Shown here piece by piece: positions 471 to 32,750 of a stretch of 64,000 bases of DNA. The notes beneath the pieces were generated by a model, which was given only the letters and a program-made list of their open reading frames with translations, did not search any database and was not told where the DNA came from. A program made the position numbers and the translations under genes. How positions within the stretch are numbered: position 1 is the stretch's first letter; the number at the start of each line of letters is the position of its first letter. This stretch comes from Opeltia flavorubescens. Taxonomy: Eukaryota > Ascomycota > Lecanoromycetes > Teloschistales > Teloschistaceae. The stretch is taken from assembly GCA_000442125.1 (NCBI GenBank), contig KE546972.1:1200022-1264021 (forward strand), in the 5' to 3' direction.

Positions 471-561
471 TTACTAGTAGGAGCTAGATAATACTCGTTT
501 CTATTTACTACTTAATATATTATTTATATTCCTTATATACTAAGTAGTGGTTTTTATACTC

Positions 562-832: not shown

Positions 833-954
833 TTATTATATTTTAATACTATTTTCTATTTATAAACTAACGAGTAAATTAAACGATGAAATTAAATTTT
901 AAAATAATTTTTAAAAAATTAATATATAATAATAATAAGTATATTTTTATTAAT
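833..954 (+). mobile_element. Element D2, left piece (5'-truncated Ty3/gypsy fossil)
   Basis: This stretch aligns with the reverse complement of D1 near 20450-20590, for instance around GTAAATTAAACGAT at 871. It is the left part of D2, cut from the rest (30174-32750) by insertion of A1. It ends in TTAAT (950-954), the target-site copy repeated after A1 at 30174-30178. The D2 5' end is missing: similarity to D1 fades near 833. Broken and heavily RIP-mutated. Confidence 0.75.
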
Positions 955-1159
955 TATTATTGCTATATCGTATAAATAGAAGACTAATAGGGCAGGTAGG
1001 GCTAAATAGCTACCGTAGCTCGAAGGAAGCCTTTTGAATATATTTATCTAGTTAGATTTAGCGCCTTTTAGCGCCTATATTTATTTAATTATAGATTTTA
1101 TAAATAGATAATTTTTCACCTTGAATATAATACTATTACCTTATATTTAGTATATAATA
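955..1159 (+). repeat. A1 5' LTR (205 bp)
   Basis: Aligns without gaps to the LTRs of A2 (47090-47294 and 54080-54284). The conserved core around GGGCAGGTAGGGCT (990-1003) makes it easy to spot. Preceded by the TSD TTAAT. Confidence 0.9.
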
Positions 1160-2100
1160 AATAGTAGTAATTAAAGGTAATTTATATAAAATATAATACT
1201 ATTAACTCCTATATATATTTATTATTAAATATTATATAATACTAAATCCTTTAAATAAATCTAATACTCCTTTATTTATTAAACTACCGCTTTTATATTA
1301 ATATTCGGTTAATAGAGTTAATTAAAATATATTCTAGTTTCTAGTCCTTCTAATAAAGTTCTAGATATTTTTTATAATAATTTAGAGGATTTTATTAACT
1401 TTATTATTATACTAGCTTTTATTATAATTATCTTTTAAATTAAAATATTTTAAAAATATATTAAATAATTTTTAAAGTAGGATTAGACGTTTATAAGAAT
1501 TTTTAAAATTTATACCGACTATATTTATAAAAGAAATCCGAGTCTATATTATTTTTTAATATAGGAATCTTTTAATAACTAGGTAACTTAAGCTAGTACA
1601 GCTTTTATTACTATTTACTCTATAATTTAAAGAGAATATTTATATATTTTTACTAAAATAATAAACGATTTCCGTAATAATACTACTATAATTTTTAAAA
1701 ATAAAAGCTTTTAAATTTATATTTAAGAACTAGTAACAATATTAACCTAGAATAGTTTAAATCTATACCTTTATTTTCTAAATTTATTAAAAAACTTATA
1801 ATAATTTAATAAATTATAAATATTACTAAATTTATTAATATATTTAAGTACTAAAATTATATTTCTAGTACCGAATTCAGCTTACTCTATTTAATAAAAT
1901 CGAAAGAAAATATTATACCGCCGCTAGATATAATAGGACTTCTACTATAATAATAATAGGATAAATCTATAAGTAATAATAATTTACTATAATAATAGTA
2001 AGTTCTTTTAAATAATTAACTACTTATAAATACCCGTCTAGCTTAACTATTAGAATTTTTTATACAAAACTTCTAAAATTAATTAATTACTATACTAATA

Positions 2101-2296
2101 AATATCGAAAGTATATAAGTAGTATACCGCCAAGCATGCCAAGACGGGTACTCCCGTAGAGCCTCAGTAGAGTTTTATTTACCTAATCGGGTTAGACTGG
2201 TATAAAAGGATCCCTAACCACCAGATTTATCTATATATAAAGTAGGTAGAGCCTACTAGTTAATTAATTAAGCAGTATTTTATATATATAATTTTA
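2101..2296 (+). repeat. B 5' LTR (about 196 bp)
   Basis: Matches 8876-9071 along its whole length. Landmarks shared by both copies are AAGACGGGTACTCC and CGGGTTAGACTGGTAT, and both end in TATATATAATTT(C/T)A. It keeps patches of higher GC than the body of the element. Confidence 0.85.
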
Positions 2297-2313
2297 TCAG
2301 GTTATAAGCCCGG
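2297..2313 (+). other. B primer-binding site, half initiator-Met tRNA type
   Basis: TCAGGTTATAAGCCCGG directly follows the 5' LTR. It closely resembles the primer site of Drosophila copia (GGTTATGGGCCCAG), which pairs with the anticodon-side half of initiator methionine tRNA. This supports the copia call independently of the protein relics. Confidence 0.7.
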
Positions 2314-4199
2314 AGCTTATAGCTATTTATTTATATTTATTATATCGTTTAATTTATTACTCTTATTTTTATATAAATACTTCCTAGTATTATTAATACG
2401 TACTACGTTTAAGTATCTACTAGAACTTTATATAAAGCTTATAACTAGGCGAGTAATATATAGAATTACTAAGTAGAATAAAAGAAAAAAGGAATAAGTT
2501 TAGTTTATAGCTATTATATATTATACTATAATTTTTAGATTTTATATACTAATATAATCTAGATCTATTAGCTAAGTTAATCTATATATTTACCCTTTAT
2601 ATTTTACTTATTAAGTAACTATTATATTAAGCTTCGGGTAGAACGCTAATCTACTATATAGTTATATTTTATTATTCTTTAAGAAACGGTATAAAGTTAG
2701 GATAATATAACGCTATTATTAGTTAATTAAACGCGCTATAGCGCTTTTAAACTATTTTCCCTACTATTTTAGGAAGAATCTAAATATCTAGATAGTTATA
2801 TAAATATTTACTAGTTTTACTAGCAGTTTTAAAATATAAATAAAAGAACTAGCGTTATTATAGTACTAGATTTTATTTATAAAAAAGGGGTTAGTTAATA
2901 ATTTTCTAGTTATTATATTCTATTATTAATTATTCGTATTAGTTAAAAAGTTTAAAATATATCTACTAACTATTAAAACTATTATATAATATATTATTAG
3001 ATAAAGAACCCTTATATATCTACTATCTATTTTTCTAGCCTCTATATTACTAGCTATATTAGCTATAATAGATCTATTAGGGTAATATTAAGCTTTATTA
3101 TTTAAAATACTTTTTCGTTTATATAAAATAAATAAATAATTTAAACGATTTATTAAAAAACGTTTTTTTAAAAGTCCACCTTTAAATTTTCGTATATAAC
3201 GCGTTAAGAAAAACTTTAATTAAATTATTAAAAAGCTTTAAACTATTAATAAATATTAATAAATTATTAATATTACTAGTAGCGATTTTAAAAAATTTAA
3301 TAATTAGAATTCTAACTATTAATTATTTAATAAATTACCTTCTATATTAGTTTAACTAATAAACCCTAATTCTATTAATCTATTTAGCCTATTATTATTA
3401 GTATATCTTTTCGGTTTAATAGTTAATACTTTATTTAATAGCCTTTTTACTTCTTTTTTACCTTTTTTTTTACCGATTCCTATATCTAGTTATTTATAAA
3501 CGCCTAGTTATAGTTATTTATATCTATTAATCTCGCGAGACTATAGTAAATTTATTAATATTATATTTATTAATAAGGATATTACTAAACTAGAGGGTTT
3601 AAACCTTATAATTTTATTAATTCCGATTTTAAATATATTTAATAATTAGAAGCTATAAAATTATTATATTTAAAAATTCCTATTAATTAATAAGTTAGAT
3701 AGTATTTTTAAGAAAGTTTTTAACTATTATATACCTACTTCTTTATAATAATACTAGAATAAAAAAATATATAGAGCTATTAAAGTAATCTATAAATTAA
3801 GTACTTATACTTTTATAAAATATATAAATATACTACTATAAATAATTATTAAACTTAAAGCTAGCTTTAAACTATAAGGAACCGCTAATCTAAAATAAAT
3901 CTAGGCCTATTTTAATAATCTTTATTATTTATAATTTAAGAATATTAAAAAATATATAATAAAATTCTATTATTTAAATAATAAATTTATAATTATAAAT
4001 CTTATTTTTTCTAAATTAATATTTATTAATAAATTTCTTTCGAGTCTTAAACCTAATTTTTCGATTTTTTATACTATTTTTATTATTACTAATATCGTTA
4101 TATCTAAAGCTGGTATATAAAACGTTACTCTAGATAAAATAGTCCGTATAGCTAAAAAGGAGGAATATTTTTAATAAACTAATACCTCTATTAATTTAA

Positions 4200-7100
4200 T
4201 AGTAATAATAGCTATAAATAGCGAGAAACGTCTAGCGGATTAATATACTATTTATAAGAAATTAGGCTATCTAGTTAAAAATTACTTTAAAAACTATCCT
4301 AAACTCCGTTTAAAATAGTATAAAAAAGGCCTAGATAGTTATAAAGGTAGTTATAGAGGTTATAGCGGCTATAATAGTTATAATAATAATAAAAATAGTA
4401 GTAAAAATAATAAGAATAAAAAAAAGGATAATAAAAAACGCTATTATAATAATAATAATAATTCGCGCTTTAAATCTAAAAAGAGTAAATAAAAAGACGA
4501 TAAAAAAACCGTTAGTTTCTTAATAATAATTACCCTATTAACTATTAACCTAAATCTTACTAATAACTAGATATTTAATAATACTTACTTATAGTATATT
4601 ATTTTTTAAAAATACCTATTAAATAACCTTTATCTATTAAAATAGATATAAATAATAGAATACTTTAGTATTAAAAATAATTTAATATATATAAATTTAT
4701 TAAAGCTCTAATATATAATTAATAAAAAATTAAAGCTAGTGATAATTATAGATATCTAGTATATACTAAAATCGGTAGCTAACTTACTATTAATAGACTA
4801 GTTTTAGAAAAAAAATACTAAATTTAAACTACTAAATAAAGGCTTCCGTTTTAATTTTAAAACCCTTAAAATTATATTAATTACTAGAAGGCGCGGTAGA
4901 TATTACCTATTATATCTAGTTAAAATACTTTTATTAACGTTATTAAAAACTATAAATATATTTTTAATAGTTATTAATAAAAAGGTTAAAAAAATCTAGT
5001 ATATCTATTTAGACTATATTAGTAATTAAAAAATTCTAAAATTTACTAGCTAATTAACCGGTATTAATTTAAAAAGGATTCCGAATAATTATATATATAG
5101 ATTTTATATAATTAATAAATAATATTATTATTTTTATATTTCACTGATTAAACTTCGTAAATTATTAATAAAATTAGTTTATTTAAATATTATAGGTTTC
5201 GTTTAAATATCCCTTTATAAACTTTTTATAGTTTATAATAGTATAGTTTATATACTAACCTTTCTAGATAATATAATTTAAATTTATAACGTATTTTATA
5301 ATAGAATAAAAAACGCCGAAACTATTTATACCTACTAGAATAAATTTCGGACTTTATATAAAATAGATTTTTATAGAATTAAACGTTTCTAAAGCGATAA
5401 TAATAATAAATATAAAAATAGATTTTTTACTACTAACTTCGTGGAACGTAGTATATATTAGAAGCCTATTATTACCGAAAATTTAAAATAAAATAAAACT
5501 ATTAAATAATTCGAATAAATAATTATATATAAAATATATTTAATATTTATCGCTAATAGTATAAATCTAAAATACTAGTTTCTCTTTATTAAAACCGCTA
5601 CTTTCCTTTATTTCCAATCGTTAAATAGTAAATTTAATAATATAATACTATATTAAAAAATATATAAAATTTTATTAAATCTATTTAAACTTTATATTTT
5701 AGATTTAACCGCGTATCTTTTTTATATATACTACTTTTATAAATTTAACTCTCGGGCCGAACGTTATATCTATATTAACTATTTTTTAAATAGTATATAT
5801 AAACTAATAAAACCTAATAATAAAATTATTTATTATTTTTTAGTAAAGTTTAATAAATTTAATAACCTAGATATAAATAATATTAAAGATAGTAATAATA
5901 AATTAAAATAATTTAAACTAGCTTTTAAATATTAGAAACGGCCTTTATATATAAATATTAAAGGGTTACCTTTTAGATAAATATTATATATAAATTAAAA
6001 ATCCGCGGTATATAATTAATTAACGTTTTTACTATTAATATTATTATAATCTATATCGAATTTATTATTAAAATCTTTACTTCCACTATTATTAATAATT
6101 TAAATACGTTATAATAAACGATTTATAGTAAAAATATCTAGTTTAATTTAAAGCTATTCTATTAATATATTAATTAATACCTTTAAAAATTATCTATAAC
6201 TACGCTTTTTTTAATTACTATCTAGATTATTAGATTTAATTACTTTTTTATCGGCTTTATTTAATAAGATAGGCCTTAAAAGCGACTCTCTAAAGTCTAG
6301 AATATATAAAGAAGCGATAGCTAGACTATACGCTAAATAGTAGAATTAAATAATAAAAAAAAAGCTAGAGTTTTTAGAATATAATAATATATAAATAATA
6401 TATACTAAATTATTACTACTTTTTATATAGTTTATTTTTTCTAGCCGCTAGATCTTTAAAATTAAACGTAATATATATAATAATATTATAAAATTTAAAA
6501 TATAATAAATAATCTATAGTTTTTTATAGTAATCTAATTTTAATTATAATTAAACCTTTATATTAATAATAAAGCTAATAAATTATAAAGTAATTTTCGT
6601 TATAATAACTATTCTAGGTCTTAAAGTTAACTAGATAAATATAAAAATAACCTTCTTATATAATAAAATTAAGGAGGTTATATATATAGAGTACCTTTAT
6701 AGTTTTAATAATTCTAGCCTCGTTTATAAACTAAATAAGGTTTTATATAAATTTAAATAAAGCTTTTAAACTTAGTATAAATATTTTATTTATTTTTTTA
6801 AAATAATTAGTTTTTAATTTTTATTATCCAATAATAATATATTTTATAATAGGTATATTATTATTAGTATATATATAAATAATATTTTTATTTATAGCTA
6901 TTATTTAAAGGTTAATTCTATTAAAAAATAGTTTAATAATATCTTTTAAATATTAGATCTAGATTTTATTAATTATTATTTAGGTATAAAAGTTATTAGA
7001 AATTATAAAGCTAGCGCTCTTTATTTTAATTAAATAGCCTATATCGAATAAGTTTTTAGCGACTATAAAATAGTATAATATAAACTAGTTTATACGCTAA

Positions 7101-7850
7101 TAATAACCGATTATTATTTAATTTCCTCTATTAATTTATAATATAAGTATCTAATAAAGCTAAAATATTAATATTAAAACACAGTAGGCTTATTAATATA
7201 TATTCTACTAAAAACTCGGCTTAATATTGTTAATATAATTATAATAGTTAGCCGCTTTATATCGAATTTAATATAATCGCATTTTATAGCTATTTAATAA
7301 ATTTTTCGGTATTTATAAAATACTAAAAATTTGGTTTTAGTATATACTAGAAGTTTAAAATAGTTAAAGAGCTAGATAGATTTAAACTAGGCTAGTAATT
7401 ATAATATAAAACGCTTTATATCTAATTATATCTTTTATATTAATAGTAACGCTATTAGCTGGTTATTTAAACGATAGAATATAGTAGTACTATCTATTTA
7501 TAAAGCGGAATATAAAAGTTAAACCTAGGCGATTAAAGAAATAATCTAGCTATAAAACCTATTTAACTAACTATCTATTAATAGTATAAATAATTTAAAT
7601 TCGGAGCTAGTAATAGTAGTACTCTACGGCGATAATTAAAAAGCTATTATCTTAACTAAAAATCCTTAGTTTTATAGGCGTATTAAATATATAAATAATA
7701 AAATTAAGTTTTTACGCGAATAATAAGTAATAGATCTAGCTTTTATATTTATAAATAAATAAATTACTAATAAACTTATTAAAACTTTTAATAGGCCAGC
7801 TTTTAAACGTTTCTATAATATACTAGGTTTTTAATAGCTAGAAGGCTATA
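4200..7850 (+). pseudogene. B gag-pol relic (zinc knuckle, integrase, RT, RNase H)
   Basis: Read on +, in order: a zinc-knuckle-like stretch near 4235-4310; the integrase zinc-binding part and catalytic core about 4980-5850, including the piece where copia integrases have RFRSDNGGEY (near 5385-5420); reverse transcriptase about 6240-6950, with the YVDD-type active-site region near 6855-6885; and copia RNase H to about 7750, recognisable from the DNQ-A-I-L-KNP-F-R-KHI pattern near 7630-7700. Integrase before RT is what separates copia from gypsy. The frame is broken by very many stops. Limits are approximate. Confidence 0.75.
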
Positions 7851-8406
7851 TACCGCTAATACCGCTAAAGATAAAGCTTAAATAATTATATATACGCCGT
7901 AAAGTAAACTTTTAACTCGTTTTTTTTTATTATTATTATTAAAACTCGTTATAATCTTTTATTTTTAGGCTATAAGAGCTTTAATAATCTATCGGGCTAT
8001 AGAATAAACTTATTTTTATTACTAAATACTAAGAATTATCCGCTATAAGCGCGTTATACGTGGTTTTAGTATATTTCCGGGCGTAATTTATAGATATAAT
8101 CTATTATAATACTATAAACGTTTTTATTAATAATATTATTAATTTTTATCCGATTAACGCTATAATTATATAAAGTATTTAGGTATCTTATAACTATAAA
8201 CTCTCGTTATTAAATAAGATATATACCGCCTATAGCTACTATTATAGGCTCGCTGCTATTTATCTAGCTATTAATATATAAAATTGTTATAAAGTAATAA
8301 AAGGCTTTATTCCTATATATTCTACGGGCCTATTTTTATCTAGAATTCGCGAATCTAAATTTATAGTAAAATTTTATTTTTAAAATATATACGAAAGTAT
8401 AAAAAG

Positions 8407-8490
8407 GGTATATTATATTACTAGAAGTATATTATATTACTAAAGGTATATTTTATTACTAAAGGTATATCGTATTACTAAAGGTATATA
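8407..8490 (+). repeat. 19-bp minisatellite in the B 3' region
   Basis: Four consecutive 19-bp units (8407, 8426, 8445, 8464) of consensus GGTATATTATATTACTAAA are followed by a partial fifth at 8483. The array lies between the RNase H relic and the 3' LTR, so in untranslated DNA. The units differ from each other at only one to three positions. Confidence 0.9.
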
Positions 8491-8875
8491 AAATCCCTTT
8501 TTAATAGAAGGAAATTAATAAAATACTCTTAGTAATTAATTCCTTTAAAGTCGGTAAAATAAATCTATAATAAATAAAACGAATATATATATTTTATATA
8601 TAGTAAATTAGTACTAATAATATATAGAAGTACGCTACTACTATAGGGGGTTTAATACTATAGAAGTTTTATACTAGCTATTCTATACTAAATTATTTAG
8701 CGTTAAAAAGCGTACTAGAGTTATTAAAATAGCGGGCTAATAAATTTATAGGAGCTTTATACTCCTATTCTATTTTATTTAGTTTTCTCTATTTTTTTTC
8801 GATTAACGTAACTATATATATATCTATTTTTTCTTTTTTTCTACTAAGGCGTTGGTAATATAGTATTTATATACA

Positions 8876-9071
8876 AGTATCGAAAGTATATAAGCAGTAT
8901 ACCGCTAAGTATACCAAGACGGGTACTCCTATAGAGCTTTAATAAAGCTTTACTTACTCAATCGGGTTAGACTGGTATAGGAGTATTTCCAGCCACCAGA
9001 TTCATCTATATATAAAGTGGGCAGAGCCCACTGGTTAGTCAATCAAGCAGTATTTTATATATATAATTTCA
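8876..9071 (+). repeat. B 3' LTR (about 196 bp)
   Basis: Partner of 2101-2296. It is less mutated than the 5' copy, keeping for example CCAGCCACCAGATTCATC at 8989-9006. It is followed by the TSD copy and then by the A1 sequence. I could not see a clear polypurine tract in front of it. Confidence 0.85.
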
Positions 9072-11699
9072 ATAATAAATCTAATAATTATATTAATAGC
9101 TACTAAATCGTAATAAAGAACTTATAATATTAATCTATTTTAGCTAGATAGTAATAAATAGTCTATAAAGTTTATAAAGTTATATAATTTCTATTATAAT
9201 ATATACGCTTTTATATAATATATAAAAATTAAGTATAAAATAATAAATATATTATTAATATATTATAATCTGGATTCTTATTTATAAAGCGAAGCGGTTA
9301 TATAGTTTACTATTATAATTAATAAGCCTACCCGTAAATCGCTATAATTACACGAAAATAATAAACTATAATATATATTTTTTAAAAACTATTTCAGCGA
9401 GCTATNGTCTACTATACTAGCGTAGCTAGAATAAATATACTATATTATTAACAATATACGCGCTTAAAAAAATCCTTCGGAATATTTTAATAATATTATT
9501 ATTAAAATAAAAAATATAAAAATAATATTTATTAAAAATATTTAAATAATAATTAATATTAAATATTTTAACGCCTGGTTATAGATATTAATTTCAGATA
9601 AAACCGTAATAATTATAATTAAAACCTTTTATAAATTTCTTTAAAATAAAAAGAATAATTAATTTAATATTTATAATAATAATAAAAACTATAAAGCGCC
9701 TAAAACTAAATCTTTTATAAAAAAAATAAAAATAAATAATATAAAGAAGTAATAATATACTAGCCGCTATAAAATAACTCTTTTTATACACCTAGATATC
9801 TATTTATATACTTAAACTATATATAAAAAACTTAATCGAATATATTTTCTATTATATATTAATATTAAAATCTTTCTATAACTTTATAAGCTCCGTTAAT
9901 TTAAAGTAAGCCGGATATATAGAATAATTAACGTACTATTTAAAATAATTATTAATAATTTCTATTTAAAAATAATATTCTATTATAATAAAATTAAACC
10001 GGAAATTAATAAAATTATAATTATTAATAATATAATAATAGCCAGAATTTTTATAAAAACCGCTAATTAAATAACTAGTAAGTTTACTTCTAATAGAAAG
10101 CTTTAAGCGAGCAGGTTCTAGATAATAAAATAGAATAGTACTAGAATTATAAAAACGGCTTCTATTAATTAATAGATTTTACTAAAGCTAAATATATAAT
10201 AAACGAGGAACCTAATAAAGCTCTATATATTACCGCTAAAAATTTTGACTAATATAATAATATAATAGAATTCTATTTTATTATAGTAAAATATATAGTA
10301 TTTAAACCAATTAAAATATACTATTATAATAAATATAACAAACTTTTTAAATTAAATAACGCTTTATATCGGTATTTACACTCCGATTATAGTAAAAAAC
10401 CACTCCTAGCTATAGCTACCACGGTTGAGCTAACTATTAAGTTAAATATTCTACTAGTACCAACGCAAACTCACTTAAAACCAGCTGAACTATTTAAAAA
10501 AACGCTAAAGGTTATTAAATAACTACCGCTACAGGCGCTATAATTAATTCGCTCGACCGTAAAGAATATACTAATAGTAGGCTTTACCTTTTAAAAATAC
10601 TATTATATAACCGTAGATATTCGCTTATAATTTAATATAAAAAACTATAGCTTTTATTAAAATATAAACTATATAATAAATCTAATTAATTAAAAATTTC
10701 TATTAAAATAACTACCGCATGCTATAATTTAGAAAATACTAGTTTTTATAAATATTAAAAGTATTAGCGAGAGGCGATATAATATTATTAAATTTATTAT
10801 TATTAAAATCTTTATACTTAATAAAAAAATTATAGAGTTTACTATTATTATATACGAGTTTTATCTAATAAACAATTTAAGCGCTAATATATTTATTAAT
10901 ATCGATATTATAAAATTTAAAAATATCAATATATATTTATCTATAAATATAATAATTATTAACTCCTATAATAATATAGTAGTATATATCGATATTAATA
11001 TTATAGATACTAGAATAAACGTTATCGTTTATAGTATTTAATATATTATAATATTTTTATATATTAATAAAGCTATTAAAATCGCTAGCCTATATTAAAA
11101 CTCTCTAAACCTTTTATAAAACTATAATTTTATTTATAAACTAAAGATTTTAGATACTTTTACTAGTTATATATATATTATAGATTTTATATTTAAATAA
11201 ATCTACGTTTAAAACGATTTACTATTTTTTATTTAATTAACTATAAAAACTTAACTAGGTACTATTTTAAAATATAAAATTAATAAATATTATTAAATTA
11301 GCTTAAAAGATTATAATCTAGCTATTAAAATATTAAAATAAAAGCCTGGATAGTTTTTAAAAACTTTTGAATACTATATAATAGCTATTATAATAGCTAT
11401 TATAGCTTTAAATACCGCTATTATATTATTTATTAATTCTAACTATTGGATAAAAATAGTATATTCTATAAAAGTAACGATTTTTAAAATATAAACTAAA
11501 TAAATTACTTTAACTACTTTAATTAAATACTACCCGCGTTTATAATAAAATACCGGTAATATAATTAATATATTAGAATTAAAATATATAAATATTTTAT
11601 TAATAAAAAACTAAGAATAGATTTATAAATTTAAGTAAACCTATATATACCTTATTAATATTTATAATAAAAAGGTTATTAATATAGTTTATAATAAAC

Positions 11700-14600: not shown

Positions 14601-14730
14601 TCTACTTAATACCTTATTTATTAAATAGGTTATAGGTTTAAAAATAATTAATAAATACCCGAAAACAGTGTAAATAATATTAAAATACTAATAAAAAAAT
14701 ATAAATACCGATTTAACTTAAATTCGACCC
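11700..14730 (+). pseudogene. A1 pol relic (RT, RNase H, integrase, chromodomain-like tail)
   Basis: By alignment with A2, the reverse transcriptase active-site region lies near 12090-12115. RNase H lies around 12550-12800, the integrase zinc-binding part near 13190-13430, the integrase core about 13470-13990, and the GPY/F and chromodomain-like tail about 14240-14650. In the living family these copy the RNA genome and insert the DNA copy. Here the reading frame is destroyed throughout by RIP. It ends where C inserted at 14737. Domain limits are approximate. Confidence 0.7.
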
Positions 14731-14736
14731 TAAACT

Positions 14737-14949
14737 TATAAGATCGGAGACTCAGCGGGTATAAAATTCGCAGGAGGTAGGGCTATACCTAATATAGGTA
14801 GCGCCTATACTTAGTAAAAACCCTATAGACTCTAGGCTACTAATTTTTTAGTAATTAGTTCTACTATTATTTAAATAGGCGTTTTTTATATTCTACTATA
14901 TAGCTTTATTAATCCGAGGTTTATAGGCTGCTTATTTAATAATTTTATA
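14737..14949 (+). repeat. C 5' LTR (213 bp)
   Basis: Same length as, and colinear with, 29630-29842. Its first 90 bases are fairly well kept (AATTCGCAGGAGGTAGGGCT at 14766-14785) while its last 20 are strongly mutated. The 3' copy shows the opposite pattern. Confidence 0.9.
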
Positions 14950-17040: not shown

Positions 17041-17800
17041 AAATATTAGTATTATTTATTAAAAAAAAGATAGTAGTTTATAATTATATATAGATTATAA
17101 AAATCTTAATAAAATTATTATTAAAAATAAATATCCTTTACCTCTATTATTAAAAATCTTAAATAGGTTTATATATATAAAATAATTTATTAAAATTGAT
17201 ATTTATAATATTTATTATCATATTTAAATTAAATAAAAAAATAAATAGAAAATTATATTTTAAACTTATTATAGGTAATTTAAATATTGAATTATATTAT
17301 TAAACTTTATAGATACTTCTATTATATTCTAATTATAAATTAGAAAAATATTATAATTTTATTTAAATATATTTTACAGAATTTATTTAAATTATATATT
17401 AATCTATTTTAAAAAAAAAAAAAAAGTATTAAAAATATATTTATATAATTATTAAAGCTTTACTAAAGTATTATTTATATATAAAACTATTAAAAAATAT
17501 TTTTAATTAAGTTAAAGTTATATTTTTAAATTTTATAATAGATTAATAAAAAATTTATATAGAACCTTTAAAAATTAAAACTATAAATAAATAGCTAGTA
17601 CTAGAAAATATAAAAGATATTCTAATATTTTTAAAATTCGTAGGATTCTATAGGCGATTTATAAAAGGTTTTTTATAAATAGCTATCCTTTTAACCGATC
17701 TAATATAAAATACGAAAAAAAAATAAGCTAGGCCTAAATTTATTTAATTTAAAAAAGTATAAAAAGCTTTTAAAAAACTATAAAAGTTTTTTATTTTAAT
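17041..17800 (+). pseudogene. C reverse transcriptase relic
   Basis: Read on +, this carries the gypsy RT pattern: the D-Y-x-x-L-N-K-I-T-I-K-N-x-Y-P-L-P-L block at about 17085-17145, the K-I/L-D block near 17190-17220, the Y-L-D-D-I region near 17390-17410, and the F-L-G-F-x-x-F-Y-R-R-F-I-K block at about 17630-17670. The relic stops where D1 inserted, just before the RNase H part, which resumes at 25525. Gag-like sequence lies upstream (about 15000-16400) but I could not define it well. Broken by many stops. Confidence 0.75.
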
Positions 17801-17805
17801 CTTTA

Positions 17806-18062
17806 TATAAAAAGGATGCAATAGCAGGGAAACTATATAGAAATATAGATAATAATCTAGCGTTCTACTATCGTATACACGAAGCTATACGTAGAGAATA
17901 TATATATATTAATATCTAGAAAGCTATAAATATTAAAGGGAATTCCTTTAACTATATAGGCCCCCTTTTCTACTAGTATAATATAGCGATATAATATTTT
18001 AATTAAAACTATATAACAGCTCTATAATATTATAATAAGCTAAACTATTATTAATTATAATA
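17806..18062 (-). repeat. D1 3' LTR (257 bp, minus-strand element)
   Basis: Equal in length to 25263-25519 and clearly homologous to the D2 LTR at 32494-32750 in reverse complement. On minus it begins TATTATAATTAATAATAG and ends CCTTTTTATA. Confidence 0.9.
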
Positions 18063-18076
18063 ATATCCCCTCTTTT
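18063..18076 (-). other. D1 polypurine tract
   Basis: On minus this reads AAAAGAGGGGATAT immediately before the 3' LTR, the expected place for the plus-strand primer. The same tract stands before the D2 LTR (about 32480-32493). It fixes the orientation of the D family. Confidence 0.75.
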
Positions 18077-21000: not shown

Positions 21001-24000
21001 CGTTTTTTTATAGTTAAAATAACCTATTATAGAATTATTATAATTATATTTAAGGGCCTTTTATTTAATTATATTAGAAAGTAGATACTATTTTTTATTA
21101 TAATAAAATAATTTTTAATTCTAGTATTATTTATAGTCTTTATTAAATTATTTTAGCGTTATATAAACATTTAACAAATTATTAAATAATTTCTTTTTTA
21201 AAATTATCAATTTTTTAATTATATTATTAAGCTGTTAAAATCCTTTTATAATATAGTAGAAGAATAGCGGGGGTACGTTATATATATTCTTTAAAGCCGC
21301 TTTTTTAACGATTTATTATTTTAATTATAGATTTTTAAGATTATTAAAATTATTTAAAAGAATCGATTAAATATTATTATATATAGTAGTATTAGATTTA
21401 TAAAAAGCTAAAAGCTTTTTATATACCCTAAGACTATAAGTCCTTATTAATATCTATCTCTTTTCTATTTTAAAAGACTTCCTTTTAATTATAAAAAATA
21501 GAGTCGACGCTTTTATATCGCTCTTTAAAATATTTTTATCTCTTTTTTCTATTAATATTAAAAGTATCCTCTAATTATAAAAAGGTATAAACGATATAAT
21601 ATTATCGCGCTTCTTTATATAAATATTAAATATACGACCTTTTATTAAAAATCTATATTTAAAGATATTTTTTAAAAACTCGCCTTTTTTATTAGAAATA
21701 TTAGCTTTTACCTTCTTTACTATATAGTATATTACTACCGTTTTTTAAATATCTTTAATAATAGTTTTAATATTTTTAAATAACTTTTAAAAGTTTTTTT
21801 AAATATTTTTAAATAACTTTTAAAAGTTTTTTTAAATATTTTTAAAATTAATTAACGATATTTTATTATTAAAATAGCTCTCTTTATTATTTTTTAACGA
21901 CTTTCTAGTATTATTTAGGATCTTCTATAAGCTCTTAGATTTATTTTTATTTTATCTTATAAAAGTTTTAAATAAATAATACTAGATTCTTAAAGGACCT
22001 ATAATCGGTTTTATACTTTTTTTAAAATTTTTTTAAAATTTCCTAAAGTATAGAGTTAAATAGATATATTTTTAATTTAGGGTATTAAAAGTAGCGTAGG
22101 CTTTAAATACTTTATAATCGCTTCTCTATAATATTATATTAATAGAATTTAGTTTATTTAGTCTATACTTTAGGTCTAGATCTAGCCTAGCTAGCCGTTT
22201 TTATTATCTAGCGTTCTTATAACTAAGCTCCTTCTTTATAAAAAAATTATAAAAATTTATATAATTAATAATAACTTCTATTTTATAAAAGACTTCTTTA
22301 ATATAATATCGCTACTATTTATAGACGTAAATAATAATTAGTATTTTTAAATCTTTAATACTATAATTATATTTAGCCGTTATTTTCTTTTAAAATTAAT
22401 AGGCGATAAAGTACTAGCGGATCTATATATTAATATTAAAGGACTATAAAATAATTATTAAAATAGTATATTTTAAAGCGTCTATTTTAATATAAATTTA
22501 AAATATATAGTTAAATTATTATAAAATAAATACTATTATAAAATATTCCTTTAATATTTTAAACACGTTAACTATTTTTTTAATTAAAATAAATTTAATA
22601 TTAAATTTTCTTTTATTACCGCTTTTTAATAACGATATTAGTAGTAGTATTACCCGCGAGAATATTTTAATAAAACGTTAATAAGAGTTTACGAATTTAA
22701 AAAAATATTATATATTATAGTATAATTTTAAAAGGGATTAATTTTTTATATATTTAATATAGGACTTTTTTATTATAATACTATTAAAGTAAATAATAAA
22801 TTTTATAAATCTAATTTTATATATATTAAATAAATACTTATTTAATTTAATATATAATCTATATTATAATAGTTTTATAAAAACTTTTTATATATATATT
22901 AAATATTTAGTTTTATTTTTAAAATAAACTAGTAAATTCTTTATATATATTATAATAAAAAGGTCTAAGAAGTTTTTAAAAACGTTATTAATATATATTT
23001 AAAAAGTAACTAGGGTATTTATTAAACTAAATAATATAATATAATATTTAAAATGGCTATAATAAGTATAAAATATTATTTTTTATTTATCGCCCTTCTA
23101 GATCTTAATATAATAGTAGGTATTCCGGATATTTAAGCGGGTAAAGATTATTACTCTATATAGCCTATTTAAAGCTTTTAATATTAGGGGAAAAAGGTAT
23201 TAATTCTTAATAGTAACCCGGTTTAGCCTTTAATAGTTAATATAAAAGTAAAGGCTACTATCTTTTTTTTTTATAAATATAATTAAAGCGCTAGCTCGCG
23301 ATATTAAATAATAGATAAACCTTTTTACTAGATTCTTATTAATATAGATCTATAAAATCTTTAATTTAGTAATTAAAAGATTATATAAAAGTTTAAATAA
23401 TAGATTACTTATTATTTTAAGGGCGTAATTACTTATAGAGTATTTAAAAAGTTTATTAGCTTTTTAAAGGTTATAAACTCTTTTTAAATTAGTATATTTT
23501 TTAAATAAAATCGCTTTTTTAATATTATATAGAGCAATTATATCGTTTTTATTATATAGCTCTATATTAAAAAAGTATAACTATTTAAATCCTTTTATTT
23601 TTAATAAGTATCCTAATTCTTTAACCGGAATTAGTTTAATATCTATTTTTATTAGAATAGCGCTAGAATCGCGTTATATTTATTATATATATACCTAGTT
23701 AATATTTAAGTTATATTAATATAATTATAAGAGGCTAAATATAATATTAAAAGACTTAATATTTATTTTAATATATTTATTTATTATTATTTTAAATTTC
23801 TTTTTTAAATTAATAAAGTTAATTAAAAATTTATATTTTTAAAAATAAATTAAGTTTATATTATTTAATATTCTAACCGGCGCTTTAATATCGCGGCTAT
23901 TATATAGCTTTAGCTCTTTTATATAGTATTATAATATAAAATTTAGGCTTATACTATAATTAATAAATACGGGTAATTTAATCTTTTATTCTTCTTTTTA

Positions 24001-25262
24001 AATAATTATATTTATAACTAGATAAAATATTTATAACCTTATTTATTAACGATTTAATAGTATAAAAATAATATTTATTAGATTTTATCTTTTCCCTTTT
24101 TATTTTTATAAGGGTAATCGGGTCTTTTATAACTTTTTTTACTATACTTTTAATAAGTAATCGTTATTAGTACGTTACTATTTTTATAAAAGCCGCGGCT
24201 ACTATTTAAATTATATTTTCAAGAATTATACTAGCCTTTATAATTTCTATAACTAGTTATTATTGTATTCGCGCTAGTCGCTGGTATAGTAGTATTAGAT
24301 AGATCTTATTTTTTTTAACTACTTCTATAGCTTTTAAAATTTAATATTCTAGTATTTATATTACTATAATTAATATACGTTTAATATTATAATTAAACCG
24401 ATTTATTTTTAATTATTTAATTAATAATCCTTTAATATATTTTTAGAAGGTTAAATATTTTAAATATTTCGTCAATTATACTATTTTAAAAGNCGTTCTT
24501 TAGAATATTTACCTAAATATAATTTAATAAAATTTTCTTTATATAATCTTTAAAGTCTTCTAAATATTTAATAAATAAAAAAATATTTTATTTATTATAG
24601 TACTTCGCGTTAAAATATTATAATATTATTTTAATACCGCGGATAGTTTAAAGGTTAAATTAATTTAATAAAAGTTTTAGCTATTTCTTTTAAATTATTT
24701 TAAATCTAGTATTTAGATTTATTTCTTTAATTTAGTTCTATATATTCGCTGGATAGCGACCAAGGTAGTTTATATTAAATAAAATCTTTAAAGCTTCCGT
24801 CTTATATATAACTAAATAAATTTTAAAAATATATTTATATTCGCGTTTAAATAATATATACTTTATATAGCTTTTATCTTTATATTAAGTAGGATTAGAG
24901 ATTTTTAACTTTGATTTTTTATTTATTTTCTATTTTTTAATATATTTAAGGTCGTTAATCGGGGTTTTAAAAGCTTATTATTAATATATAATAGTAGATA
25001 ATTCCGGGAATTCTAATTTTTTTTTAGCTTTTAATATTTCTAACCTTTTTTATTAATAAACTAGAGCTCGTTTTATCTTAAAGGCTCGAATCTTTATATA
25101 TAAAATATTACTAATAAGCTTATCTATATTATTATCTTATAATATAACCGTATTTTTTAGCGGTTATAATCTAGTTATAGGTATAGTATTATTATTACTA
25201 CCTTATTTTATAGCTTCGCGATATAATCGAACTGCTTTTTATAAAAAGTAAAAATATTAAGA
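18077..25262 (-). pseudogene. D1 internal region relic
   Basis: By comparison with D2, the GPY/F-like end of integrase maps to about 20000-20110. Integrase, RNase H, RT and gag should therefore follow to the right in that order (about 20300 up to 25200). I did not resolve each domain by reading. About 1.7 kb between the chromodomain-like part and the 3' LTR is unassigned. One ambiguous base lies at 24493. Broken by very many stops. Confidence 0.55.
21771..21845. repeat. 33-bp tandem duplication inside D1
   Basis: The unit TATTTTTAAATAACTTTTAA plus 13 more bases occurs twice in perfect tandem (starts 21771 and 21804), with the beginning of a third. The second unit carries no change, so the duplication looks more recent than most RIP in D1. 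D2 lacks this part of D, so it cannot be compared. Confidence 0.85.
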
Positions 25263-25519
25263 TATAAAAAGGATATAATAGTAGAGAAACTATATAAAAA
25301 TATAAATAATAGTCTAGCGTTCTATTATTATATACACGGAGCTATATATAGANAATATATATATATTAATATCTAAAAAGCTATAAATATTAGGGGGAAT
25401 TCCCTTAACTATATAGGCCCCCTTTCCTATTAGTGTAATATAGCGATATAACGTCTTAGCCGAAGTTATATAACGACTCTATAATATTATAATAAGCTAG
25501 ACTATTGCCAACTATAATA
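25263..25519 (-). repeat. D1 5' LTR (257 bp, minus-strand element)
   Basis: Partner of 17806-18062. On minus it starts TATTATAGTTGGCAATAGTC and ends in CCTTTTTATA. It keeps more unmutated bases (GTTGGCAATAG) than its partner. One ambiguous base lies at 25353. Confidence 0.9.
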
Positions 25520-25524
25520 CCCTA

Positions 25525-27700
25525 TTTTATAATACTATAATATAAATACTAAAATTCGTATAAAAACGGATATATTAAAGCGTAAAATAGGGGGGATTTT
25601 TAGCTAAAAACTAAAAGAAAGTTTATACTAGTATCTAATAGTATTTTTTAGCTATAAATTTAAAAATATAGAATTCTACTAGAATATATATAATAAAGAG
25701 CTTTATATTATAATACTAGGCTTTAAAAATTAGCGGTATTATTTATAAAAAGTTAGAAAAATAATTTATATAATTATAAATTATAATAATTTTAGGTATT
25801 CTATAATTATAAAAGAACTTATTATAAAATAAATACGGTAAATAAAAAAACTAACTATATTTAATTTCTATATAAATTACTAGAAGAGTTTATTAAACCT
25901 AATTGATATACTATTTAAAAAGCCTAATATTATAAAACCTAATAATAGTAAAGATAATAATAATAACTTCCTATTTACTCTATAAAATAAACTTTATAAT
26001 AAAGACTACTAGTTTAAATTATAGAAAGAAAATAGAGTACCTATAATAATTAAACTTATAGTAATTTTAATAGTATAACTAGATAGTATAATTATTATAA
26101 ATACCCTCGCTATTTATAAAAATAAAGAAGAACTTAAAAGAATTTATAGATTTTTAAATTCTATAAACTTTTAGCTTTTAATTTAATAGGTTATTAAATT
26201 AAAAAAATCTTTTTTAAATATATAATTATTTATAATAGAGTAGCTTTTTAAATTTTAATAAAAAAACGTCTTTATTATTAAAAAGGAATAGCGCTAAAAA
26301 TTTACTACTAATTAAAAAGAATTTTTAAAATAAAAGGTTAAAGAGGATAAACTATTTTAAAAGGGGGGAAAATTTATATATCTAATAATCTAGTTATAAA
26401 AGAAAAAATCTTTTATATAAATTATAATAATTTTAAAGCGGGTTATTTCATAAAAAAAAGAATAAAGGATTCGATTTATAAAAAATACTATTAGTTAAAT
26501 ATAATTAAAAAAATTTAAAATTATTATAAAATATATCCTAATTATTAAAAAGTACGAATTTATTATTATAGACTTTATAACTAATTAAAATTAATTTTAT
26601 TAAAAAGTATAAAACCGTTTTATATAGTAATAATAGACTTTATTACTAATTTACTATTTATAACCGACTTTAATATAAAAAAGACTTATAATTTAATTCT
26701 TATATTAATAAATAAATTAATTAAATATATAATTTATATTTCTATTATTAAAGATATTAATATAGAAAAATTTATAAAGTTATTATAATATAAATTTATT
26801 AAATACTATAAAATTATATAAGAAATTATTAATAATAAAAGGTCGTTTTTTATAAATAAATTTTAAAGTATTTTTTATTATTATTTAAATATTAAAAGAA
26901 AATTTAGTACTATATTTTATTTTTAAATTAATAGCTAAATAAAGCGTGAAAATTAAATTTTAAAATATTATTTATAAATTTATTATAATTATAAATAGAA
27001 TAATTAATCGGAATTATTACTTTTAATAAAATTTACTTATAATAATAATATATATATAAGTACTAGTAAACCGCTAAATAAATTATTTAAAAAATATATT
27101 ACTATTTTAAAAATTAAATTTAAAAATATAATTTCTAAAAAAAAGGCGTTTTAAATATCTAAAAAAATAAATTAATTAAAGGATTTAAAAAAATATTTAA
27201 CTAAATTTTATAAAAAAATTTTTAAATAATAAATAAAGTAGTATAATATCTATTGTAAAATAATAAACTTTTAAAAAAATAATAAAATACTACTATAAAA
27301 TATTAATATCCGTATTTTAAAATTTAAAAAAAAGCTAGACTATAAATAATTAAAACCTTTTAAAATTTTAAAAAGAATTAATAAATAAATTTATTTTTTT
27401 AAAATAATTAAATAATATAAAAAAATCTACTCTATATTTTATATTAGTCTACTTAAACTATAGTACTTTTATAATAAAGACCTTAAGCTTTAGCCTATTT
27501 TAATAAAAGATAAAAAAAAATAAAAAATAAAATAGATATTTAATAAGCGTATAGTTAAAGGTAAACTTTAATATTTAATTTATTAAATTAATACTATATC
27601 TTTTAAAGATTTTTAGAAGCTAATTAATAACCTAGATAATATAAAGAAATTTATTAGGGATTTTAAATAGATAAAACTAAAGATAAATATATTAAAAAAA
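25525..27700 (+). pseudogene. C RNase H, integrase and chromodomain-like relic
   Basis: The frame of the RT relic resumes right of D1. RNase H starts near 25550 (R-I-x-T-D pattern) and runs to about 26000. The integrase zinc-binding region lies near 26440-26600 and the catalytic core about 26600-27080. A GPY/F-like stretch (K-L-x-x-x-x-x-G-P-F-K-I-L type) lies near 27330-27470. A chromodomain-like stretch follows near 27510-27650. Broken by many stops; limits approximate. Confidence 0.7.
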
Positions 27701-29629
27701 ATAAAGGCTGGAATAAAAAGTATATCTAAAAGTAAAAAAAAAGGGGTAAATTATATAAAACCTATTAATTATTTAAAAAAATTATTACTAGAAATTTATA
27801 TATAAATTAAAAAAATTTATATTACTATACTAATTTAAATAATTATTATTTCTATAAACTAGTCTATAATATATCTATATTTTTAAGCGAAACTATTAAT
27901 TATTATATTTAAAAGTAAATTATTAATAAAAGCTTTTAAATAAATAATTAAAAGAATAATTATTAATATATATTTTTTTAGCGATTTATTAAATATTATT
28001 TACTTTATTTTATAATAAAATAAAAGCCTCTTTTATTATAAAAATAAAAAGTTTAGCTGGATTTATTATTATTAAAATAGTAGTATTAATAAGCCTGCGT
28101 TCTATAAAAAGCTTTACTTTAAATTTTTAAAAATATTATTACTAGAAAGCGAAGGTAACTTTAAAGTTCGCTTCTAGATAAAAGTATTAGTAAAAATTCT
28201 TAAATATATATTACTTTTTTAAAAGGTAGATATTCTATTTATATAAATAATTAATAAAAGAATAGTAATTATATTTAATAGTTTTTTCTATAAATATATA
28301 ATAAATATATATAAAATTTATTATAAAATATTTAATATATTATATATATTAAATTAGGCTTTTACCGACTAAAAAAGATTATATTAGTATTTAATTTAAA
28401 AAAATTTAAAAATTTAAATAATTATTTAAAAATACTATTAAAATTATAAATCGCGGAATTATAATTTAAATATATAAAAATCTATTTTTTATATATTTTT
28501 AAACTACGGCTCCTTTTTATAATCTTTTTTAAATAGAAGGGCTATAGTAAAAATTATATAAAGAGTTAAAAAAAAATTTTAGAATTTATTTACCTATTAG
28601 ATTAGCTAAAATTTATAAAATTAAATAAAAATTTTAAGGAAATAAAAAAAATTGATAATTTTAGTACTATAATTTAATAAATAAATTATAATAATAGCTA
28701 AATATTATATTTATATAGTAGATTATAACTTTAAATATAAAATAAAAAAAAAAGCTATAAAAAGTTCGCAGTTTAATAAAAAATAAAAATTTAAAAAAGG
28801 ATATAATTATTTAAATATTTTAAAAAATATTCGTTAAAAAAATATTATAAAAATAAAAAAAGGCTTAATAAATAATAGTTAAATAAAAGAATAATTATTT
28901 ACTTTTTTATTATATTTATAACTTATTAAAAAATATAATTCTAAAAAAAATTCTAGCTTATTTTATATCTATTACTATATATTTTTTAAAAGTAAATTAA
29001 AGCCGAAAATCGAATTTTAAACGACTTTATATAATATAAAATAATTTAATACTATTAAAATAGATTTAAAATATTTTATTATTATATAATAAATAAAATA
29101 ATATTTTAAAAAGAAAAATTATATAGTAAAAATATTATTTATTTATAAATTTAATATTTAAAAATAATCTAATACGGTTAAAGGCTGAAATTTATAGATT
29201 TTACTTTTTAAAAAAGTTTTAAAAGTATTTTATATTATTTTAAATTATTTTATAATAAATAAAAAGATAAAATTTTAGTATATTTATTTATAAATTTTAT
29301 TTTTTAAATTTTATAAAATAACGCTAAATAGATATTATAAGCGAGAAGTTTATAATTTATAAATATTTAAATAAAATTAAAATAATTAATTTAATTTATT
29401 TAAATTAATTAAATAAATCGAAAAAAAAAAATTATACTTTTAATTAAATTATAAAGTATTTAGAATTTATAATTATATATAAAATTCGTTTATCTATAAT
29501 TTATAAGGTTAAGTTTTATAGATCCTAATATAACTATATACCGGCTAGTAAAAAGTAGAAGTATACTATATAAACCTATTATTTATTAATAGGATTTAAA
29601 GGACTAAATCTAATTAAAAGGGATATAAT
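27700..29629 (+). other. C 3' tail, about 1.9 kb without recognised domain
   Basis: Between the chromodomain-like relic and the 3' LTR lie about 1.9 kb that I cannot assign. No second LTR pair or TSD is visible inside it. It may be a long 3' untranslated region, an extra gene of the family, or a further insertion too decayed to see. Confidence 0.5.
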
Positions 29630-29842
29630 TATAAGGCTAGAGGTTTAGTAGATATAAAATTCGTAAAAAATAAAGCTATATTTAATATAAATAGTATTTA
29701 TATTTAATAAAAACCTTATAAACTTTAAACTGCTAATTCTTTAGTAATTACTTCTACTATTATCTAAATAAACGTCTTCTATATTCTACTACGCAGCTCC
29801 GTTAACCTGAGGTTCGCAGGCTGTTTGCCTAGCGACCTTATA
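29630..29842 (+). repeat. C 3' LTR (213 bp)
   Basis: Partner of 14737-14949. Here the last 80 bases are well kept (around CCTGAGGTTCGCAGG) and the first part is strongly mutated. The TSD AAACT and the A1 sequence follow directly. Confidence 0.9.
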
Positions 29843-29968
29843 AAACTATAATAAGGCCGCTAATAATACTAATATTAATATTAAATAGCAGGAATAAATT
29901 AAAAAGCCGTTTATTAATAAAGAAAAGTTTATTATTAAAAGCTAATAGTTTTATTTATTACCGGTATC

Positions 29969-30173
29969 TATTACGGCTATACCGTATAAGCAGAAAGTTA
30001 ATAAAGTAGGTAGGGCTAAATAGTTATTATAACTCGAAGGAGGCTTTTTAAATATATTTACCTAGTTAGATTTAGCGTCTTTTAGCGCCTATATTTATTT
30101 AGTTATAAGTTTTATAAATAAATAGTCTTTTACCTTTAATATAATACTACTATTCTATACCTATTATACAATA
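29969..30173 (+). repeat. A1 3' LTR (205 bp)
   Basis: Colinear with 955-1159 and preceded by the A-family stretch CCGGTATC, as in A2. Followed by TTAAT (30174-30178) and then by the D2 sequence. Confidence 0.92.
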
Positions 30174-32750
30174 TTAATATAACGCCGTTTGTTATTATTA
30201 TTATTAATAGATATTATAATTTAAAAAATTATATTAAAATTAATAATATTAAAAATAATTTATTTAACGCGCGTTAATATATTAAAGAATATAAATATAT
30301 ATATATTTAGTTTAAAAGTTTATAAAAAATAATAAAAAAAAAATCTAAATACTATAATTAAAAATATTCCATAAAATTTTTTTTTACTAGCGATATAATA
30401 TAGTTAAATAAATATAATATTAACATAAAAAGGCTATTAAACAAATTAGATTATAAATTTTATAGATTTTTTAAAATAATAAAACTAGTAAATTTATAAT
30501 TATACCGCCTAAAACTTCTAGTATTCATAGATTATATTTACTCTATTTTTTATATCTCTCTTTTTAAACTATATATAATAGTAGAAAAAAAAGATAAAAA
30601 AACTTACTATTTTTATTTATTAATAGTAAAAGTAATATAAAATAAAAGAAGTATTTAATTTAAAATTATATTATAGAAAATTATAATATTTAATTAAAAA
30701 GTTTAATTATAATTTTAAAAATAATAACTAATTTAATATTAAAAGAATATTAGAAGCTAATAAATATATAAAGGACTTCTATTATATATATTTTGAAAAA
30801 CTATTAAATAATAGTAAAAAAAACTTTTTAAAAAAAAAGTAAAAAAAGAAAATAAACTATAGTTAAATTATATATAAGTATATAAATAAAACCACGAGTA
30901 ATTCTAGAAATATAAAATAATAATAAAAATAAAATTTTATATAATTATTAAAATTTACTAGTAGAATAAATATTAAAAGATATATATTATAAAATATATT
31001 ATTAGAAAAGATTAAAGTTAAAAAAAGACTTTATTAAAATATAAATTTTAAAACTATAATTACCCGAAAATAATATAGATTTAAAAGTAGAATATAAAAA
31101 TAAATATAGAAAAATAAATATTAAAAATAAATACAAAGTATTAAATAAATATAAAACTATATAATAATACTATTTTTTTCTATATTACTTTTAAAAATAA
31201 AAAAATTATTTTTTTTAATTAAATTTAACTATTCTTTTTTAATAATTAGAAAATTTAAATAGTTTTAATATAAAATAAGTACGCGAAATTATATAGAAAA
31301 GATAAATATATAATAGAATATATTATATTAATATCTATATTAATCGATTTTTTTAAAATATAAATAGCTTTAATAGTATTAAAAGTATTAATAGTTTTTT
31401 TTTATTATATTTTAGCTTTTTTTTAAACCTTGATTTATTTATAATTAAAAAAAATAATAATACGCGAGCGGTATATAATATATCGCTTTTTATTTTTATC
31501 GATAATATTAATAATAATAATAGCGAAAATTATTTTATTAACGATTAAAATAAATTTTTAAAAAATTTATATAAATTAAAAAAGCTACTATAATATATAA
31601 ATTTAATAGATTAATTTAAATTTTTTATAAAATCTAAAATAATATATATAATACCCTAAATCGATACTAGACTTTATATAGTAAATAAAAATATAATAGA
31701 TAATAAAATTATTTTTTATTTATTTTTTATTAAAGATTATTAAATAATAATATTAAATAAGCGATATATATTATAATACTAGCTTTAATATACCGATAAT
31801 AATAATTTTTTTATAAAACGAAAATATTTAATAATATTAAAATATCGGGTATTTATATATTTTAAAAAGTTTTTTTAAATATAAAAGTTTTAATATAATA
31901 AAAGATATAAAAATTAGAAAAAATTAATAAAAATATAGAACCGGTAAATAAAAATAAAGTACAGTAAAAATAATAAAAATTTAATTTAGAAAATAAGTCT
32001 ATATTAAAGGAGAAACGTTTATTATATATTTATATATAAAAAATAGAATTATATTATTTAATATAAAATTTTTAATACTAATAATATAAATTAAATTATT
32101 TAAAGTTTAAAAGTTTTAATTTATTATAATTATTATAATATAATATAGCTATTAAATAAAGCTATTAAACGATATTAATTTCTATAACTATATTTTAACG
32201 CGAGTATTTAATAATTATTAAAAAATATTAATAATAAATTATTAAATAATAATTAATATTAATATTAATATCGAATAATTTTTAATATATAAAATAAAAC
32301 TATTTATATATTTTATATATAATAACGAGATATTTTATATATAAATGTATATTAATATTATATACTTTTAAATTATTAATTTAATTAATACGCGTTTAGG
32401 TACGCGCGCTTTATATAAAAGGTTTAGCTATTTATTATATATATATCGCCTAATTATTAAATAATAAGAATACTATTATAGAAAAAGGGATATTATTATA
32501 ATTAATAATAGTCTAGCTTATTGTAATATCGTAGAGCTATTATATAGCTTCGGCTAAAATATTATATCGCTATATTATACTANTANNAAANGGGGCNTAT
32601 ATANTTANANGAATTCCNNNTAATATTTATAGCTCTCTAGATATTAATATATATATATTTCTTATATATAGCTCCGTATAAACGATAGTAAAACGCTAAA
32701 CTATAGCCTATATTTTTATACAATTTCCCTGCTATTATATCCTTTTTACG
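30174..32750 (+). mobile_element. Element D2, right piece (3' part of a Ty3/gypsy fossil)
   Basis: Continues the D sequence of 833-954 after A1 and aligns with the reverse complement of D1 from about 20440 down to 17806. It holds a GPY/F-like stretch near 30440-30560 (Y-K-F-x-G-P-F-K-I type, then H-x-V-F-H-V-S-L-L), a likely chromodomain-like region near 30590-30800, a tail of about 1.7 kb, the polypurine tract and one LTR. Together the D2 pieces make about 2.7 kb, so roughly the 5' two thirds of the element are missing. Broken by many stops. It is the oldest layer of the left series, since A1 inserted into it. Confidence 0.85.
32494..32750 (+). repeat. D2 3' LTR (257 bp)
   Basis: Homologous over its full length to both D1 LTRs and preceded by the polypurine tract. 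Eleven ambiguous bases are clustered at 32583-32620, which suggests mixed or unclear reads at this repeat. It ends ..TTTTTACG. No TSD can be checked because the 5' end of D2 is lost. Confidence 0.88.

What the first reader, a model, noticed from the sequence alone, without database searches (positions are those of the whole stretch)
833..32750. Four-deep nest in which family D is both the oldest and the youngest layer
D2 was split by A1, A1 by C, and C by D1, each step supported by paired LTRs and by a 5-bp duplication (clear for A1 and C, plausible for D1). Family D was therefore active before A1 arrived and still active after C had inserted. This gives a relative clock for three families from one locus.
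Basis: seen in the sequence. Interest (0 to 1): 0.7.

Follow-up and report, generated by a model that had tools for sequence, protein, structure and literature searches.

The report
Nested dead retrotransposons in fungal AT-rich block
In an AT-rich, possibly centromeric stretch of a fungal chromosome, mobile elements jumped into one another four layers deep, with the outermost and innermost from the same family; the order is real, but nests like this are well known and it does not rank the families by age.

Summary
The four-deep nest is real. D2 is split by A1 (target duplication TTAAT/TTAAT), A1 by C (AAACT/AAACT), C by D1 (CTTTA/CCCTA, two C/T differences). Uninterrupted relatives run through each insertion point. 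D2 reaches about 9.8 kb beyond the window's left end and is also split by element F; A1 also holds B1. All is RIP-degraded: GC 16.8%, CpA at 0.11 of expectation, 152 of 159 LTR-pair differences in the four layers are transitions. LTR divergence therefore gives a wrong order (D2 11.8%, A1 18.8%, C 28.1%, D1 14.1%). Whole-element transversions, which RIP does not make, recover it: D2 0.0199, A1 0.0152, C 0.0076, D1 0.0033 (the D2 and A1 intervals overlap); host exceeds guest in 8 of 8 comparisons made. So D was active before A1 and after C. It is no clock for families: elsewhere A sits in C (two loci) and D in F, and this window also holds A in E in A. Of 174 tallied hits, 164 lie in one block of at most 250 kb per contig on 21 contigs, suggesting centromeres (inference). 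RIP-degraded nests in AT-rich DNA are a known kind. Open tension: D2's LTR pair shows only 1 transversion in 245 sites.

The parts
849..954 (+). D2, fragment between F and A1 (includes the copies of the F and A1 target duplications 849-853 and 950-954)
   Evidence: Matches D1 20575-20469; straight-through match to D copies across the A1 insertion
30174..32750 (+). D2, right fragment with its 3' LTR (about 32494-32750); the 5' part of D2 lies left of the window, to about -9756
   Evidence: 82% identity to D1 over 2.58 kb; left part in L016; LTR ends
1..848 (+). F, right end of a Ty1/Copia-type element that starts at -5558 (LTR about 108 bp; TSD CTATT/CTATT at -5563..-5559 and 849-853); inserted in D2
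   Evidence: LTR pair 83.8%, ends, RVT_2 matches inside other F copies
955..30173 (+). A1, split by B1 and C; LTRs 955-1159 and 29969-30173; TSD TTAAT/TTAAT
   Evidence: A2 47090-54284 is an uninterrupted relative
2100..9071 (+). B1, Ty1/Copia-type element in A1; LTRs 2100-2296 and 8875-9071; TSD CTAAT/ATAAT
   Evidence: RVT_2 matches inside other B copies
14737..29842 (+). C, Ty3/Gypsy-type element in A1, split by D1; LTRs of about 200 bp; TSD AAACT/AAACT at 14732-14736 and 29843-29847
   Evidence: RVT_1 matches inside other C copies
17806..25519 (-). D1, Ty3/Gypsy-type element in C; LTRs 17806-18063 and 25262-25519; TSD CTTTA/CCCTA at 17801-17805 and 25520-25524
   Evidence: empty site in other C copies; RVT_1 matches inside other D copies
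40911..41198 (-). A5, 3' end with LTR (second nest)
41199..57529 (.). E, element with LTRs of about 294 bp, inserted in A5 (TSD TCTAC/TCTAT) and itself split by A2 (second nest); coding strand not tested
   Evidence: (LTR pair 81%)
47090..54284 (+). A2, complete element inserted in E (TSD ATTAT/ATTAT); uninterrupted reference for A1
57530..64000 (-). A5, main part; runs on to about 64437 in L017 (second nest)

Best explanation
A stack of LTR retrotransposons (C and D of Ty3/Gypsy type, B and F of Ty1/Copia type, and A, whose polymerase no profile recognised) that integrated one into another with 5-base target duplications in an AT-rich block of a fungal chromosome, and were then mutated by repeat-induced point mutation (RIP, C-to-T change in repeated DNA during the sexual cycle) until inert. 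Order at this locus: D2, then A1 (and, separately, F), then in A1 the elements C and B1, then D1 in C. Shown: the structure, the order of the four layers, and the RIP signature. Inferred: that the block is this chromosome's regional centromere, that nesting arises because insertions there are tolerated or targeted, and that A, C, D and F were active over overlapping periods.
For: Paired LTRs, target duplications and continuity of each host across its guest. Empty site for D1: by my count of rows, 16 of 20 neighbouring left/right C pairs have the same 15-base spacing once unaligned ends are allowed for, one has 16, and three differ (deletions or matches that stop short); three copies read directly run through. 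Joined-flank tests. RIP: CpA and TpG at 0.11 and 0.08 of expectation; 152 of 159 LTR-pair differences in the four layers are transitions. Transversion branches D2 0.0199, A1 0.0152, C 0.0076, D1 0.0033; B1 0.0056; F 0.0109; stricter masking keeps the order and cutting three copies as a control changes none by more than 0.0001. 38 of 40 RVT_1 and 27 of 27 RVT_2 matches in the genome have in-frame stops.
Against: D2's LTR pair has only 1 transversion in 245 sites. If D2 is at least as old as A1 by the branch clock, about 7 are expected (my arithmetic; Poisson chance of 1 or fewer about 0.005). Two D2-specific transversions occur in both its LTRs, so part of D2's branch predates its insertion. 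Bootstrap intervals of D2 (0.0163-0.0236) and A1 (0.0124-0.0183) overlap. Terminal branches depend on which relatives were fetched (3 to 7 copies per family). The D1 duplication is only 3 of 5 identical. No read data were available. None of the listed polymerase matches lies in the window copies themselves. CenH3 was not testable.
Confidence: 0.92

Rival explanations
1. The nest is partly an assembly artefact: similar copies were joined wrongly.
For: The region is highly repetitive; D2's 3' LTR holds 11 N; no reads were available.
Against: Duplications flank every layer; no N within 20 bases of the nine junction positions checked; hosts resume at the exact base on the other side; comparable nests with identical duplications occur on C19 and C9.
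Confidence: 0.04
2. D1 and D2 belong to different subfamilies, so 'the same family, oldest and youngest' overstates the case: an older D lineage gave D2 and a later one gave D1.
For: D2 has 134 transversion sites of its own against 26 for D1, two D2-specific ones occur in both its LTRs, and only 1 separates those LTRs; D2 and D3 lack about 52 bases that four other D copies have.
Against: D1 and D2 align over about 6.8 kb with 2.4% transversions and the same LTRs; D3's LTR pair (7 in 250) agrees with its branch as post-insertion change.
Confidence: 0.25
3. The families came as successive waves (D, then A, then C, then D again), as a family-level clock would have it.
For: The order at this one locus.
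Against: A in C at C19 and C9, A in C in A at C13 (one end each), D in F at C6 and F in D2 here, A in E in A in this window.
Confidence: 0.05

Closest known systems
Nested LTR-retrotransposon clusters of Mycosphaerella graminicola (Zymoseptoria tritici), PMC4522978 (passages seen)
   Same: Clusters of 2-7 elements, LTR elements as base and insert, verified 5-base TSDs, RIP-type transitions, lowered GC.
   Different: Here the nests gather in one block per contig, and order was also tested with transversions; the passages that I saw mention no transversion test (0 occurrences of the word in its main text).
AT-rich, RIP-derived heterochromatin and regional centromeres of Neurospora crassa (PMC10246852, passages; nested clusters in putative centromeres mentioned in PMC4522978)
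   Same: Transposon relicts mutated by RIP making up AT-rich, gene-poor blocks, of which centromeres are a subclass.
   Different: No CenH3 or H3K9me3 data here; centromere identity is inferred from clustering alone.
Nested retrotransposons of maize (SanMiguel et al. 1996; recalled, seen only in a reference list)
   Same: LTR retrotransposons inserted in one another, dated by order of insertion (recalled).
   Different: No RIP there (recalled), so LTR divergence works as a clock; here it does not.

Membership tests
LTR retrotransposon (A, B, C, D, E, F) | Paired direct LTRs | tested here: met
   LTR pairs for all six families
LTR retrotransposon (A, B, C, D, E, F) | Short target-site duplication of fixed length | tested here: met
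   5 bases; identical for A1, C, F and A2; 4 of 5 for B1, E and D2; 3 of 5 for D1
LTR retrotransposon (A, B, C, D, E, F) | TG...CA ends | tested here: met
   Seen in less mutated copies: D on C6 and A2; mostly TA...TA elsewhere, as RIP would make it. Ends of B, C, E and F were read only in mutated form
Ty3/Gypsy (C, D) | RVT_1 reverse transcriptase | tested here: met
   Matches inside other C and D copies, with stops; none listed in the window copies
Ty1/Copia (B, F) | RVT_2 reverse transcriptase | tested here: met
   Matches inside other B and F copies, with stops; none listed in the window copies
Ty3/Gypsy or Ty1/Copia (A) | Recognisable reverse transcriptase or integrase | tested here: inconclusive
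   No RVT_1, RVT_2 or Integrase_H2C2 match listed in an A copy; pieces of A2 gave only sub-threshold, unrelated Pfam matches. By eye some pieces look Gypsy-like (recall, not a test)
RIP-mutated repeats | C-to-T bias and CpA/TpG depletion in repeats | tested here: met
Regional centromere | One AT-rich repeat block per chromosome | tested here: met
   164 of 174 tallied hits in one block of at most 250 kb on each of 21 contigs of 23; capped lists, densest 250 kb chosen per contig
Regional centromere | CenH3 (CENP-A) nucleosomes | not testable with these tools
   Needs ChIP-seq or CUT&RUN

The most novel reading that the evidence does not exclude
RIP-degraded, centromere-like blocks are a readable stratigraphy. 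Although RIP spoils LTR dating, whole-element transversion depth tracks nesting order (8 of 8 comparisons here). It shows several families (A, C, D, F) re-invading the same blocks over one long overlapping interval despite RIP, with D copies at four depths (about 0.020, 0.015, 0.003 and under 0.001). None of the listed polymerase matches in D, C, B or F copies is free of stops, so their source was lost, was missed by the capped search, or came in by mating.
Probability: 0.5. Interest if true: 0.5.

Novelty: new member of a known kind. Interest (0 to 1): 0.35.

Why it matters
A nest gives an order of events that needs no mutation rate. In a genome under RIP the usual LTR dating misleads: here the third layer looks more than twice as old as the first. 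Transversion depth agrees with the nests examined, so nests could calibrate a RIP-proof clock for transposon activity. It also shows that families overlap in time, so one nest must not be read as a sequence of family waves.

Tried and rejected
LTR-pair divergence as a clock: rejected, as it orders the layers C > A1 > D1 > D2. LTR-pair transversions: too few. My first D2 boundaries gave 5 transversions, and the Fisher test printed rests on them; with mended boundaries D2 has 1, so that test is void and not used.

GC content as a measure of RIP dose: copies of one family vary widely (A copies 0.123 to 0.245), so it was not used as age.

Organism name: not pursued beyond 'fungus' (Fungal_trans; no PDB match at 1e-10). 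Class of family A: not settled. A first self-BLAST with loose scoring timed out.

Whole blocks on other contigs could not be read, so there is no genome-wide host-guest matrix.

Literature: seven searches (listings) and passages in PMC4522978, PMC13041039, PMC4994206, PMC10246852 and PMC10787394. In these I met no paper that tests nested RIP'd elements with transversions; most of the 47 papers found were not opened, and the library lacks most subscription journals.

Full report
What was checked. The window is G000:C8:1200022-1264021 of a 34.4-Mb assembly in 23 contigs. It is 16.8% GC with 19 N. DNA of about 46-51% GC begins just right of the window. An open frame there of 1002 codons carries the Fungal_trans domain, so the organism is a fungus. 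CpA and TpG stand at 0.11 and 0.08 of expectation and TpA at 1.27: the RIP signature.

The nest. Self-comparison and 110 kb of flanks give D2, about -9756 to 32750, as the outermost element. It is interrupted by F (-5558..848) and A1 (955-30173). A1 is interrupted by B1 (2100-9071) and C (14737-29842), and C by D1 (17806-25519, opposite strand to D2). Target duplications: F CTATT/CTATT, A1 TTAAT/TTAAT, C AAACT/AAACT, B1 CTAAT/ATAAT, D1 CTTTA/CCCTA, D2 CCGGT/CCGAT. The D1 and D2 mismatches are of the RIP type; the B1 mismatch is a transversion. D2 also lacks about 770 bases that D1 has and about 52 bases that four other D copies have.

Empty sites. In some searches, by my count, 16 of 20 neighbouring left/right C pairs keep the same 15-base spacing across the D1 site after allowing for unaligned ends, one has 16 and three differ. 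Three copies read directly run straight through (L022-L024). Joined flanks of six insertions were aligned to uninterrupted relatives. Five of six beat all 30 random controls with 60-base flanks. A1 in D2 did not (122 against 124); with longer flanks it scored 233-286 against five D copies, above the random-right-flank maximum of 199 in 5 of 5 and above the random-left-flank maximum of 250 in 4 of 5. No alignment has a gap at the junction itself.

LTR divergence fails as a clock. LTR pairs differ by 11.8% (D2), 18.8% (A1), 28.1% (C) and 14.1% (D1); 152 of these 159 differences are transitions. Over nine LTR pairs the mutated C was followed by T 115, A 75, G 49 and C 42 times (one N set aside).

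Transversions follow the nest. With purine/pyrimidine differences over whole elements and further copies, terminal branches are D2 0.0199 (0.0163-0.0236), A1 0.0152 (0.0124-0.0183), C 0.0076 (0.0053-0.0096), D1 0.0033 (0.0020-0.0050), B1 0.0056 and F 0.0109. Masking gap edges, match ends and clustered changes keeps the order (0.0162, 0.0116, 0.0061, 0.0026), and cutting one copy each of D, A and C as an interrupted host would be cut changes their values by at most 0.0001. With A5 over A2 (two layers, across E) and the two A-in-C nests on C19 (0.0112 over 0.0030) and C9 (0.0083 over 0.0012), the host exceeds the guest in 8 of 8 comparisons made. The comparisons share copies and are not independent, and branches depend on the 3-7 copies sampled per family. 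Against it: D2's LTR pair has 1 transversion in 245 sites, fewer than its branch implies, and two D2-specific changes lie in both its LTRs, so part of its branch predates insertion. I leave this as an open tension.

Family-level order. A is inside C on C19 (ATTAA twice) and C9 (TAAAA twice); on C13 the arrangement reads A in C in A, with one end of each insertion seen. Of seven D copies whose two ends were fetched, three had the same host on both sides (B on C19, F on C6, E on C7), one had a weak F match on one side, and three had no recognised host (library of six families). On C16 D abuts C on the left, and C is found again to the right, but the right junction was not read. In this window A5 is split by E (TCTAC/TCTAT) and E by A2 (ATTAT/ATTAT), so family A is there both outer and inner. 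The pattern is not peculiar to D, and the families overlapped. Three D copies elsewhere have branches of 0.0005-0.0008, so D was active more recently still.

Setting and mechanism. Of 174 tallied hits of five families (LTR or LTR-bearing queries; two short extra rows left out), 164 lie in one block of at most 250 kb on each of 21 contigs: D 40 of 40, B 30 of 30, F 23 of 23, C 38 of 40, A 33 of 41. Lists of A, C and D are capped at the best 40 or so, both LTRs of one element count apart, and the densest 250 kb was chosen per contig. This fits regional centromeres (inference). Nesting then follows from insertions being tolerated, or targeted, there. Of 40 RVT_1 matches 38, and of 27 RVT_2 matches 27, carry in-frame stops. 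RVT_1 matches fall inside C and D copies, RVT_2 matches inside B and F copies elsewhere in the genome; none of the listed ones lies in the window.

Comparison with the known. M. graminicola has 78 putative nested clusters, of 2-7 elements, with verified TSDs and RIP; the same paper notes nested clusters in L. maculans and Epichloe, and in F. oxysporum, N. crassa and M. grisea mainly in putative centromeric regions (PMC4522978, passages). This is a new member of a known kind. The agreement between nest order and transversion depth is the useful part.

Noticed in passing
window 40911-64000 (to about 64437 in L017): A second nest: A5 split by E, and E by A2, so family A is both outer and inner. 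A5's branch (0.0081) exceeds A2's (0.0013).
   Followed up: yes
window 40707-41117: Two A LTRs head to tail: A3's 5' LTR abuts A5's 3' LTR, as if A3 had inserted at the very end of A5.
   Followed up: no
genome-wide, one block per contig on 21 contigs: Hits of the five families gather in one block of at most 250 kb per contig (164 of 174 tallied), which suggests regional centromeres.
   Followed up: partly
contig C12 of the same genome (not fetched): One 2202-codon open frame holds both RVT_1 and Integrase_H2C2 matches without stops; its relation to the families here was not tested.
   Followed up: no
L009 (C13:487461-490658): Reads as A inside C inside A, with one end of each insertion seen.
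   Followed up: partly
L016, about window -6670: D2 lacks about 770 bases that D1 has (D1 21651-22424), presumably a deletion.
   Followed up: no
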